Origin: Thermoproteota archaeon
Lineage (GTDB): Archaea; Korarchaeota; Korarchaeia; Korarchaeales; Korarchaeaceae
NCBI GenBank assembly: GCA_027492205.1
Contig: JAOZFN010000006.1
Location: 69,369-133,368, forward strand
Reading direction: 5' to 3'
DNA: 64,000 nt
In this document: one piece after another, positions 49,234-52,732 of the stretch
How the letters are laid out: each line of letters starts with the position of its first letter
Position numbering within the stretch: position 1 is the stretch's first letter
Notes under the pieces: generated by a model
The model's input: the letters and a program-made list of their open reading frames with translations, nothing else
Database searches by the model: none
Told to the model about the DNA's origin: nothing
Program-made: the position numbers and the translations under genes

Positions 49234-50622
49234 ATGGGCGGCCTCCGGAGGGTGTACATAGAGACCCACGGTTGCACCGCGAACAGGGCGGACTCCGACA
49301 TCATGGCGGCGCTGCTCGAGCGCGCCGGATTTCAGCTGGTGGAGTCCCCCCAGGCGGCAGACGTGATAATCCTCAACACCTGCAACGTGAAGAAGCCCAC
49401 CGAGGACAGGATGGCGCACCGGATCTCCCGGCTGGCGAGCACTGGTCGGCCGGTGGTAGCCGCCGGCTGCATGGCCCTCACCCAGCCGGGGAGGCTCAGA
49501 CCCCACGCGAAGGTCCTCCTCGGGCCCAAGTCCGTGCACAGGGTGGTAGACGCCGTTGAGATTGCCCTGCGCTGGGAGAGGGCCGAGTTCCTCGAGAGAG
49601 ATCCGCTCGACAAGGCGGGCTTGCCGAGGACTCGTGGTAGGGTTATCTCGGCTCCCCTGCCCATAGCGGAGGGCTGCCTGGGAGCCTGCACCTTCTGCAT
49701 CACCAGACTCGCCCGAGGAAGGCTGAAGAGCTTCCTTCCGGACGCGATCGTCGAGAGGGCCAGGGAACTACTCTCCGGAGGTGCGGTGGAGCTTCTGATA
49801 ACGGCTCAAGATACGGCTGCCTACGGCTGGGACACCGGCTGGACCTTGCCGGGGCTGCTCGAGAGGATCTTGAAGATCCCCGGCGAATACAGGTTGCGGG
49901 TGGGGATGGCCAACCCGAACACGCTCGCGAGGGTGATCGACGACCTCCTCGTCACCATGAGGGACCCGCGGGTGTATCGGTTCCTGCACGTTCCCGTGCA
50001 GAGCGGGAGCGATGACGTGCTGAGGAGGATGGCCAGGGGTTACAGAGCCGAGCTGTTCGAGAGGCTGGTTTCGAAGTTCCGGGCCGCCTTTCGCGACACC
50101 ACCCTGGCCACCGACGTAATCGTGGGCTTCCCCGGGGAGACCGAGGACGACTTCGAGATGACCGTTGGGCTGCTGGAGAGGACGAGGCCGGATGTCGTGA
50201 ACATAAGCAGATACGGACCCAGGCCTGGCACTCCGGCCTCGAGGTGGAAGTCCCCCGATCCTGCGACCGTCAAGCGGAGAAGCAGACTGATTTCCGAGCT
50301 CGTCAAAGAGATCAGCCGTAGGGGGAACGAGGCCTACGTTGGCGATGAACTCACGGTTCTCGCCCTGGAGCGTGGCCCCAAGGGGTACCAGGGCAGGACG
50401 GACTTCTACAGACCCGTTGCCCTGGTGGGGTCCGACGTGGAGCTCGGCAGCTTCTACGACGTGGTCATCGAGGAGGCCAGGCCCACCTACCTGGTGGGCA
50501 GGGTACTGGCCAAGAGGGAGGTGAAGCCGCTGGAGGTCACGTCAACAGTCACTCGGTCGGGAAGTAGTCGTAGATTGGCCACTGGGCGGGACGGAATCCC
50601 TCGGCGGCGCGCGGCTCCGTGA
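49234..50622 (+). CDS. mtaB: tRNA N6-threonylcarbamoyladenosine methylthiotransferase (MtaB/CDKAL1 type)
   Basis: This radical SAM enzyme adds a methylthio group to t6A37 in tRNA. The UPF0004 domain has Cys in ETHGCTANRADSD, NTCNVKKPT and AAGCMAL. The radical SAM motif is GCLGACTFC near residue 147, with the GGA-like IVGFPGETEDDFE segment later and a C-terminal TRAM-like domain. TATTAAC near 49203-49210 is about 28 bp upstream of the ATG. The last 24 codons overlap the convergent bpsA gene by 74 bp and have no conserved features. Confidence 0.92.
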   Translation: MGGLRRVYIETHGCTANRADSDIMAALLERAGFQLVESPQAADVIILNTCNVKKPTEDRMAHRISRLASTGRPVVAAGCMALTQPGRLRPHAKVLLGPKSVHRVVDAVEIALRWERAEFLERDPLDKAGLPRTRGRVISAPLPIAEGCLGACTFCITRLARGRLKSFLPDAIVERARELLSGGAVELLITAQDTAAYGWDTGWTLPGLLERILKIPGEYRLRVGMANPNTLARVIDDLLVTMRDPRVYRFLHVPVQSGSDDVLRRMARGYRAELFERLVSKFRAAFRDTTLATDVIVGFPGETEDDFEMTVGLLERTRPDVVNISRYGPRPGTPASRWKSPDPATVKRRSRLISELVKEISRRGNEAYVGDELTVLALERGPKGYQGRTDFYRPVALVGSDVELGSFYDVVIEEARPTYLVGRVLAKREVKPLEVTSTVTRSGSSRRLATGRDGIPRRRAAP

Positions 50623-51643
50623 GCACCAATACGTAGAGGTTGCTGGAGTAGCCCGCCACGGAGTCCGCCAGGTTCGGTCTGCCCATCGCCTTGGCGACCT
50701 CTTCCGCGAGCCAGTAGATTGGGCTGTCCCTCGCGACTAGATAGTGGTTGAGCCCAACGGCGACCCTCTCGACCGCAAAGCCCATCTCCCCGAAGCTCCT
50801 GAATACCCGGCTGATGTGGGACCCGAGTTCGTCGGGCAGGATGCAGACGTATCCCCTGCGCCCCCTCTCTTTTACCAGCGCCTCCCAACCCCTCAGCGTG
50901 AATGTCTGGACCCCGGGGAGGGTGTACGTCGGATCTGCCACGAAGACGTCGTGTCTGTCTCGCAGATCCTCCGGGAGTGGCTTTGTCAGGTCGTGCTTCA
51001 CCACCCTGATGCTGAGCCCCTCTCGCCTCGCTATGTCCTCTATCCTCCGAATGACCCGCTCGTCGAGTTCGAACACGGTTACGCTGACGTCGAAGCTGGC
51101 AGCGAGCACCACGCTCTGGAAGTCGTCATCCCCCATCACCGCGACGCTCTTGCCGTCAAGGGGGACGTCAGACGCGATCTCCGCAATCCTCTCGAGGAGG
51201 CTCTCCTTCGACACTTGGAGCTGGTCGAACTCGTAGTTCACATCTATCTGGGGCACCAGTCCTAGGACGCCGGGGTCCGGAGAGGTCTTGCCGAATGGGT
51301 TGACCCTGAACTCGACCTCCCCGTTTGAACCGATTTCAACGAGGCCGACCTCTTCGAGCGACCTGGCCAGGTTGAGCGCCCTCTCCGGTATGAGAGGGAC
51401 CTCCTTAATGAGCCCTCTTAGGCTTCCAATCTGGTGGAGCCTGTACGCTAGAACCTCGTACTGAAAGAAGGACAGCCTGTGAACCAACTCCCACGAGAGT
51501 CGTCCCTCTTCCGGCGACTTCCTCCCGTACACCGTGCCCGCCGCCTTGACGGTGGACTCCATGTCGTAGCGGGAGAAGAGTTCGAAGGCCCTCCTCAGGG
51601 CCTCCCTGGGGGATCCCCCCCGGGGAGAGGCGGGATCACTCAT
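50549..51643 (-). CDS. bpsA: branched-chain polyamine synthase (BpsA family)
   Basis: BpsA makes N4-bis(aminopropyl)spermidine by transferring aminopropyl groups, and such branched polyamines stabilise nucleic acids in hyperthermophiles. The 364-residue protein has an N-terminal winged-helix part and a Rossmann domain with AVMGDDDFQSVVLAA and DVFVADPTYTLPG, matching the family's GDDD and DPPY-like motifs (here DPTY). It follows the SpeD-like gene with an eight-base overlap, so decarboxylated SAM supply would be expected to be linked. The mtaB gene overlaps its 3' end. Confidence 0.88.
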   Translation of the reverse strand: MSDPASPRGGSPREALRRAFELFSRYDMESTVKAAGTVYGRKSPEEGRLSWELVHRLSFFQYEVLAYRLHQIGSLRGLIKEVPLIPERALNLARSLEEVGLVEIGSNGEVEFRVNPFGKTSPDPGVLGLVPQIDVNYEFDQLQVSKESLLERIAEIASDVPLDGKSVAVMGDDDFQSVVLAASFDVSVTVFELDERVIRRIEDIARREGLSIRVVKHDLTKPLPEDLRDRHDVFVADPTYTLPGVQTFTLRGWEALVKERGRRGYVCILPDELGSHISRVFRSFGEMGFAVERVAVGLNHYLVARDSPIYWLAEEVAKAMGRPNLADSVAGYSSNLYVLVLTEPRAAEGFRPAQWPIYDYFPTE

Positions 51644-52001
51644 TCTTCCTTACCCTTCCCGCGCTTATCTCGACTATGCTATCGGTCTCCGGCTTCAGCC
51701 TCTCCCTCAAGAACTCCAGGGCCCTCTTCGCCCAGTCAGACTCTCCCGGGGCGAAGTCGACTATGTTCACGGTCGCGTAATCGTGTTCTGGCCACGTGTG
51801 AAGGGCAACATATCCCCTCTCGGTGAGCAAGAGCGAACTGACGCCGTACGGCTCGAACTCATGTATGTGAAGGGCCTTCACTTCTGACCCCACCACCTCC
51901 GCGAGCTCCCTCAGCATGGCCTCCATCTTCCTAGGGGAGTCGAGTATCTCAGACTCCCCGACGTTGTAGAACTCGACAACCACGTGGTTCTCCAGGGACA
52001 T
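51636..52001 (-). CDS. SpeD/AdoMet-decarboxylase-like protein lacking catalytic residues
   Basis: The 121-residue protein aligns with archaeal AdoMet decarboxylases over PYGVSSLLLT, HTWPEHDYA and the C-terminal helix. In active enzymes the segment before HTWPE is SESH, where the Ser becomes pyruvoyl; here it is TERG, with R62 at the Ser and G63 at the His. The catalytic Cys of the TCG motif is replaced by F83. It is therefore unlikely to self-process. The ATG at 52001 lies about 29 bp from a TATA-like TTTTTTA near 52026-52033. It overlaps bpsA, which depends on decarboxylated AdoMet. Confidence 0.8.
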   Translation of the reverse strand: MSLENHVVVEFYNVGESEILDSPRKMEAMLRELAEVVGSEVKALHIHEFEPYGVSSLLLTERGYVALHTWPEHDYATVNIVDFAPGESDWAKRALEFLRERLKPETDSIVEISAGRVRKNE

Positions 52002-52048: not shown

Positions 52049-52732
52049 TCAAAGCCCCTCTGAAGATCCAGGAGTGAGCTCCACCACCTCAGCATCCACC
52101 TTCCGGGCCCTGATCTCGTCCCTGAGCTTGTCGGGAGAGCCCCACAGGACGGGGAATGTCCCGTAGTGGATGGGCAGGACCTTCGGACTGCCCAGGAGTT
52201 CGAGGGCTTTCGCCGCCTCTCTGGGCCCCATGGTAAAGTGCCCGCCGATGGGAAGGATGGCGAGCTCAGGGGAGTAGAGTTCACCTATCAGGCTCATCCC
52301 CGGGAATATGCCGGTGTCTCCAGCGTGATAGACCGTGAACCCGTCGGGGAACTTCACGACGGCGCCGGTCGGCGCCCCCAAGGGGGAGCTGTGGAGCGCC
52401 TCGGTCAGGATGACCTCGACGTCCCCGACCTTGAAGGGCCCCCCGATGTTCGCCCCCACGGCGTCTGCCCCCTTCTCAGAGGCGTGGTTCGCCAGCTCAA
52501 ATATCCCCACGACCTTCCCTCCCCTCGTCTTCGAGAGCCTTATGGCGTCCTCGAGTCCGTGGTCGCCGTGCCCGTGGGTCACGACGTAGGCCAAGACGCC
52601 GTCGGGCTCCCCCATGCCCTTGGGGTAGGCCGGGTTCCCCTGTATCCAGGGGTCAAAGAGAACCCTAACGCCCCCGGACTCGATAAGCACGTTTGCGTGT
52701 CCCAGAAAGGTCACCCTCCCCATGGTCTCCAC
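52049..52732 (-). CDS. UlaG-like metal-dependent hydrolase (UPF0173)
   Basis: This metallo-beta-lactamase-fold protein has intact ligands: VTHGHGDHGLED near residue 52, TEALHSS, and VYHAGDTGIFPG, then LPIGGHFTMGP and LPIHYGTFP. Family members often hydrolyse phosphodiesters or lactones; the substrate is unknown. GTG 52732 fits a TATA-like GATTAAAATC centred about 29 bp upstream; ATG 52723 is an alternative. It contrasts with the degenerate paralogue at 37.7 kb. Confidence 0.88.
   Translation of the reverse strand: METMGRVTFLGHANVLIESGGVRVLFDPWIQGNPAYPKGMGEPDGVLAYVVTHGHGDHGLEDAIRLSKTRGGKVVGIFELANHASEKGADAVGANIGGPFKVGDVEVILTEALHSSPLGAPTGAVVKFPDGFTVYHAGDTGIFPGMSLIGELYSPELAILPIGGHFTMGPREAAKALELLGSPKVLPIHYGTFPVLWGSPDKLRDEIRARKVDAEVVELTPGSSEGL

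What the first reader, a model, noticed from the sequence alone, without database searches (positions are those of the whole stretch)
51636..52001. SpeD-family protein without pyruvoyl serine or catalytic cysteine, coupled to BpsA
The serine that becomes the pyruvoyl group is Arg62 and the following His is Gly63 (TERG instead of SESH, directly before HTWPE). The catalytic Cys region TCG reads D-F-A. Such a protein should not self-cleave. Yet it overlaps bpsA, which needs decarboxylated AdoMet, by eight bases. It might be a catalytically dead activator of a genuine AdoMet decarboxylase elsewhere, comparable to the trypanosome prozyme, or a new regulator of branched-polyamine synthesis.
Basis: partly seen in the sequence, partly recalled or inferred. 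Interest (0 to 1): 0.7.

Follow-up and report, generated by a model that had tools for sequence, protein, structure and literature searches.

The report
Two-gene archaeal AdoMet decarboxylase, predicted
In korarchaeal archaea a SpeD-like protein that cannot make its own cofactor is found with a second SpeD copy that has lost the opposite half of the active site, so the two very likely combine into one working enzyme for polyamine synthesis, a free-standing counterpart of the fused human enzyme.

Summary
The 121-aa protein at 51636-52001 (-) aligns without gaps to T. maritima AdoMetDC; the pyruvoyl Ser63 is Gly63 (not Arg62), His64 is Tyr64, Cys83 is Phe83. It overlaps bpsA by 8 bp. It is not an error: 21 korarchaeal genomes carry it with invariant Gly63/Tyr64 under purifying selection. 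The genome does hold a Ser-bearing paralog, 44 kb away. That paralog is itself degenerate in the complementary way: it keeps Glu62, Ser63, His64 and Cys83 but has lost Phe49, Pro51 and Ser55 in 18/18 genomes, often Glu72, and in four genomes (two genera) even the processing base His68. The dead copy keeps all of these, 21/21. None of 79 other archaeal SpeD homologs lacks Ser63, His68 or Cys83. In the eukaryotic enzyme these two residue sets sit on opposite halves of one active site. Best explanation: an obligate heterodimeric AdoMetDC, the Ser copy giving pyruvoyl and Cys, the dead copy giving the processing His and the AdoMet pocket. BpsA is incidental: 3 of 21 carriers have it. No activity was tested.

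The parts
51636..52001 (-). Dead SpeD paralog (acceptor subunit), 121 aa; numbering matches T. maritima AdoMetDC
   Evidence: AF2 model pLDDT 89.5, best PDB match T. maritima AdoMetDC 1tmi TM 0.81
51810..51815 (-). Codons for Gly63-Tyr64, in place of the pyruvoyl Ser63-His64; invariant in 21/21 genomes
51753..51755 (-). Phe83 in place of the catalytic Cys83 (F or Y in 21/21)
51786..51800 (-). Retained H68-T-W-P-E72 (processing His and ribose-binding Glu), 21/21
   Evidence: roles from PMC10407285 and PMC1282579
51837..51857 (-). Retained F49-E-P51-Y-G-V-S55 (F49, P51 and S55 invariant; S55 equals human Ser229), 21/21
   Evidence: PMC3975893
50549..51643 (-). bpsA, branched-chain polyamine synthase, overlaps the dead speD by 8 bp; in only 3 of 24 family genomes, next to the dead speD in each
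52049..52732 (-). UPF0173-type metallo-beta-lactamase-fold hydrolase, the conserved upstream neighbour of the dead speD

Best explanation
The protein is one subunit of a two-gene, heterodimeric AdoMet decarboxylase that arose by duplication of a class 1b SpeD in the korarchaeal stem, followed by reciprocal loss of active-site residues. The ancestral homodimer has two equivalent sites, each built from both protomers. Here one site is kept. The Ser-bearing paralog (L001 1480-1866, 44 kb away on the same contig) supplies Glu62, Ser63 (self-cleaves to the pyruvoyl) and Cys83. The protein in this window supplies His68 and Ser55 for processing, and Phe49 and Glu72 for the adenosine. The product, decarboxylated AdoMet, feeds the genome's spermidine synthase and, in the few lineages that have it, BpsA. 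Shown: the sequences, their conservation, co-occurrence, reciprocal losses and predicted fold. Inferred: heterodimer formation, self-cleavage of the partner in trans, and AdoMet as substrate.
For: Reciprocal pattern: dead copy G63 21/21, Y64 21/21, C83 lost 21/21, but F49, P51, S55, H68, W70, P71, E72 invariant; Ser copy E62, S63, H64, C83 invariant 18/18, but F49 and P51 lost 18/18, S55 -> I/L 18/18, E72 lost 10/18, H68 -> T/R in 4/18 (G004, G005, G008, G010). In 79 other archaeal homologs S63, H68 and C83 are 79/79 and position 55 is S/T/A 79/79, crenarchaeal pairs included, so the losses are lineage-specific. Co-occurrence: 18 of 21 carriers have both; in the other three (G014, G021, G022) the contig ends within 0.7-0.9 kb of the flanking gene, where the partner belongs. 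Both copies are under purifying selection and form sister clades (99/89). Both are predicted to fold like T. maritima AdoMetDC. SpeE is present in 19 of the 24 family genomes over the cut-off, the window's own included, so dcAdoMet is needed, and there is no third SpeD. Literature: halves of the eukaryotic enzyme contribute different residues to one site, and prokaryotic SpeD is the union of both (PMC1282579); human Ser229, equivalent to T. maritima Ser55, is needed for processing and His243 acts in its second step (PMC3975893); H68 and C83 are essential in T. maritima (PMC10407285).
Against: No complex, cleavage or activity was measured, and no dimer model could be run. In the window's own genome the Ser copy still has His68 and Glu72, so its homodimer might process itself; T. 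maritima S55A still self-processes (PMC3975893). The two genes are not in one operon. The sister grouping joins two long branches; alone, the dead clade goes to the same neighbour with weak support only. Loss of Pro51 and Phe49 in the Ser copy also occurs in some crenarchaeal homologs, so those two positions alone are weak evidence.
Confidence: 0.7

Rival explanations
1. Prozyme-like allosteric activator: the Ser copy forms complete sites on its own and the dead copy only switches it on or regulates it, without giving residues to the site.
For: A precedent exists in trypanosomatids (PMC5201418). In g1 and g3 the Ser copy retains His68.
Against: The Ser copy has lost Ser55 and Phe49 in all genomes and His68 in four, while the dead copy keeps exactly these residues invariant. 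A pure regulator need not keep the AdoMet-binding and processing residues.
Confidence: 0.12
2. The Ser copy is an arginine decarboxylase (SpeDA type) and the dead copy has another role, such as an AdoMet or dcAdoMet sensor or carrier.
For: The Ser copy lacks the proline said to mark AdoMetDC (PMC10407285, if that proline is Pro51). Several g3 genomes have no recognised ADC/ODC.
Against: It would leave SpeE without dcAdoMet. Crenarchaeal SpeD pairs, which by the literature include ADCs, keep Ser55 and His68. Genomes with an OKR decarboxylase (g1, g4, g5) or with PdaD (G017, G023) still keep the Ser copy. It scores above the TIGR03330 AdoMetDC cut-off in the window genome (81.1 vs 75.65).
Confidence: 0.1
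3. The dead SpeD is an accessory or dimerisation subunit of an aminopropyltransferase (BpsA here, SpeE elsewhere), like the AdoMetDC-fold N-terminal domain of human spermine synthase.
For: Overlapping genes with bpsA in g1 and adjacency in G004. Foldseek hits to human spermine synthase 3c6k rank directly after true class 1b AdoMetDCs.
Against: BpsA is missing from 18 of 21 carriers and speE is unlinked. The Ser copy hits 3c6k as well, so this is a fold-level match. It does not explain the reciprocal losses in the Ser copy.
Confidence: 0.06
4. Sequencing error, or a decaying pseudogene.
For: Key catalytic residues are missing.
Against: 21 genomes with invariant Gly63/Tyr64, purifying selection and conserved synteny.
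Confidence: 0.01

Closest known systems
Class 1b AdoMetDC (SpeD; T. maritima, B. subtilis, other archaea)
   Same: Size, fold, PF02675, retained F49/P51/S55/H68/W70/E72 side of the active site
   Different: No pyruvoyl Ser63 and no Cys83; predicted to work only together with a paralog that has the converse losses; the known enzymes are homodimers
Eukaryotic class 2 AdoMetDC (human, potato)
   Same: Division of labour: one half carries the pyruvoyl Ser and Cys, the other the Ser229/His243/ribose-Glu set and no cleavage site
   Different: Two separate genes, no fusion, no eukaryotic dimerisation domain; archaeal and independently evolved
Trypanosomatid prozyme / AdoMetDC
   Same: Catalytically dead AdoMetDC paralog expected to be needed by its partner
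   Different: Prozyme is a whole class 2 protein acting across a different interface by allostery on a complete active site; here each protein is one half-sandwich and residues are shared
SpeD-degraded SpeDC fusions (Victivallis vadensis, Lentisphaerota)
   Same: One live and one dead class 1b domain
   Different: Fused, bacterial, the dead domain derives from an ornithine decarboxylase; reciprocal degeneration of the live half was not described in the parts of the paper read here
AdoMetDC-fold N-terminal domain of human spermine synthase
   Same: A dead AdoMetDC-like fold tied to an aminopropyltransferase
   Different: Fused to that enzyme; the korarchaeal protein is free-standing and mostly occurs without BpsA

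Membership tests
Class 1b AdoMetDC (functional SpeD) | AdoMet_dc fold and family match | tested here: met
   PF02675 E=7e-22; AF2 model vs 1tmi TM 0.81
Class 1b AdoMetDC (functional SpeD) | Pyruvoyl-forming Ser63 | tested here: not met
   Gly63 in 21/21
Class 1b AdoMetDC (functional SpeD) | Catalytic Cys83 | tested here: not met
   Phe/Tyr in 21/21
Class 1b AdoMetDC (functional SpeD) | His68 and the Phe49/Ser55/Glu72 pocket | tested here: met
   invariant 21/21
Prozyme (trypanosomatid) | Dead paralog of an AdoMetDC present in the same genome | tested here: met
Prozyme (trypanosomatid) | Derived from a class 2 (two-half) AdoMetDC with dimerisation domain | tested here: not met
   121 aa, one half-sandwich, class 1b relatives
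Prozyme (trypanosomatid) | Heterodimer with, and activation of, its partner | not testable with these tools
   needs protein work; monomer models only
Class 2 AdoMetDC | Active-site residues divided between a cleaving and a non-cleaving half | tested here: met
   reciprocal residue table against PMC1282579 and PMC3975893
Class 2 AdoMetDC | Both halves fused in one chain | tested here: not met
   genes 44 kb apart
SpeDA/SpeDC (pyruvoyl Arg/Orn decarboxylases) | Retained Ser63, His68 and Cys83 | tested here: not met
   dead copy lacks S63 and C83; Ser copy lacks H68 in 4 of 18

The most novel reading that the evidence does not exclude
Korarchaeia make decarboxylated AdoMet with an obligate heterodimer of two reciprocally degenerate SpeD paralogs: the first prokaryotic AdoMetDC that depends on a pseudoenzyme, and a two-gene, archaeal counterpart of the intermediate proposed before the fusion that gave the eukaryotic enzyme.
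Probability: 0.62. Interest if true: 0.78.

Novelty: new variant of a known kind. Interest (0 to 1): 0.7.

Why it matters
Eukaryotic AdoMetDC is thought to derive from a duplicated and fused class 1b enzyme whose halves then specialised, but specialised unfused halves in a prokaryote were not described in the papers read here. Korarchaeia appear to hold this state as two genes conserved across the class, with stages visible (His68 of the Ser copy kept in g1 and g3, lost in g4 and g5). It is a clean case of duplication, complementary degeneration and probable obligate heteromerisation. It also warns that annotating the Ser copy alone as AdoMetDC, or the other as dead, would misread the pathway.

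Tried and rejected
BpsA-specific regulator: rejected as the general role, since BpsA is in 3 of 24 family genomes only. Sequencing error or pseudogene: rejected. True absence of the Ser partner in three genomes, which would have refuted the pair model: checked, the contigs end where it belongs. Ser copy as plain ADC: tested through other decarboxylases, weakened but not excluded. Dead-type copies outside Korarchaeia: none among the other best hits of the genome-collection scan (all keep Ser-His), 79 other archaeal homologs or 62 of 63 viral hits, one not parsed; both collection scans used motifs that could miss divergent forms. Literature searches for the T. maritima residue map by residue name and for Korarchaeum polyamines gave nothing useful.

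Full report
WHAT WAS CHECKED. The ORF at 51636-52001 on the minus strand encodes 121 aa from an ATG. It matches Pfam AdoMet_dc (E=7e-22) but falls short of the curated cut-off of the AdoMetDC equivalog TIGR03330. It overlaps bpsA by eight bases. The gap-free alignment to T. maritima AdoMetDC gives the same residue numbers in both proteins: Ser63 is Gly63, His64 is Tyr64, Glu62 is Arg62 and Cys83 is Phe83.

HOW WIDESPREAD. dN is far below dS in diverged pairs; the G000/G001 pair is too close to be informative. Gene order is conserved: MBL-fold hydrolase, then dead speD, then (convergent) a MiaB-like gene, in g1, g3, g4 and g5. bpsA stands between dead speD and the MiaB-like gene only in g1 and g4.

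THE PARTNER. The same genome holds one further SpeD homolog, L001 1480-1866 (+), 44 kb away on the same contig and outside the window. It has GESH and SSCKD. It is not an ordinary SpeD: across 18 genomes it keeps Glu62, Ser63, His64 and Cys83 without exception, but Phe49 and Pro51 are gone, Ser55 is Ile or Leu in all, Glu72 is changed in ten, and His68 is Thr or Arg in four genomes of two genera. Among 79 non-redundant homologs from other archaea Ser63, His68 and Cys83 are invariant and position 55 is Ser, Thr or Ala; this includes crenarchaeal genomes with two SpeD copies. The best hits outside the class in the genome-collection scan all have Ser-His at 63-64, and so do 62 of 63 viral relatives.

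CO-OCCURRENCE. 18 of 21 carriers of the dead copy also have the Ser copy. In the three that do not (G014, G021, G022) the contig breaks 0.7-0.9 kb from the neighbouring kinase-like gene, at the place where the Ser copy stands in its relatives. SpeE is found over the cut-off in 19 of 24 genomes and in the window's genome is a clear spermidine synthase, so decarboxylated AdoMet is required, and no third SpeD exists to make it.

MECHANISM. [quoted passage not shown] Human Ser229, equivalent to T. maritima Ser55, is needed for cleavage next to Ser68, and His243 for its second step (PMC3975893). T. maritima His68 and Cys83 take part in processing and catalysis (PMC10407285). The korarchaeal pair divides the residues along that same line. 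From this I infer a heterodimer with one live site: pyruvoyl and Cys from the Ser copy, His68/Ser55/Phe49/Glu72 from the copy in this window. That residues of these two sets face each other across the T. maritima dimer, and that Phe49 stacks on the adenine, is partly my own knowledge, supported by the cited texts but not measured here. AlphaFold2 monomer models of both are confident (pLDDT 89.5 and 88.7) and match T. maritima AdoMetDC best.

ORIGIN. A 117-sequence tree makes each copy one clade (100/99) and the two sisters (99/89), as a stem duplication would. The program warns of long branches; built separately, the Ser clade (support 96) and the dead clade (support 47) both attach to the same outside sequence. 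A common-duplication origin is therefore likely, not proven.

ALTERNATIVES. A pure prozyme-like activator is possible where the Ser copy keeps His68 (g1 and g3, including this genome), but does not explain why the dead copy preserves the residues its partner lost. The Ser copy as arginine decarboxylase is weakened by its retention in genomes that have a PLP Orn/Lys/Arg decarboxylase (g1, g4, g5) or PdaD (G017, G023), though g3 genomes without either remain unexplained. A role with aminopropyltransferases has a structural precedent in human spermine synthase but BpsA is mostly absent. Sequencing error is excluded.

LIMITS. Everything about complex formation, cleavage and substrate is inference. 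T. maritima S55A still processes itself (PMC3975893), so the loss of Ser55 alone is not decisive; the loss of His68 in g4 and g5 is the strongest single point, and it lies outside the window's own genome. Literature was searched only in an open-access library; no report on korarchaeal SpeD was found there, and an earlier description elsewhere cannot be ruled out.

Noticed in passing
L067 1459-1809 (+), genome G006: A divergent AdoMet_dc protein (GQSH...FETWPE) lies between helicase-like and primase/helicase-like ORFs, so looks phage-borne; the two g2 genomes lack the korarchaeal SpeD pair and a SpeE above the cut-off, though both are incomplete.
   Followed up: no
24 family genomes: The source of agmatine/putrescine is patchy: OKR-type decarboxylase in g1, g4, g5; PdaD in four g3 genomes; none recognised in many g3 genomes although SpeE and an agmatinase-family protein are present.
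   Followed up: partly
window 50549-50622: bpsA and the convergent MiaB-like gene (49234-50622 +) overlap at their 3' ends by 74 bp.
   Followed up: no
L001, L075, L062, L066: The Ser-bearing SpeD gene has a conserved neighbourhood across genera: an uncharacterised ~320-350 aa ORF upstream (no Pfam match for the L001 one) and a Cas6/RAMP-like ORF (my reading of the sequence, not searched) convergent downstream.
   Followed up: no
L225 (genome G094): Two adjacent SpeD-family genes in a small archaeal genome, one canonical and one strongly diverged but with Ser63, His68 and Cys83 kept.
   Followed up: no
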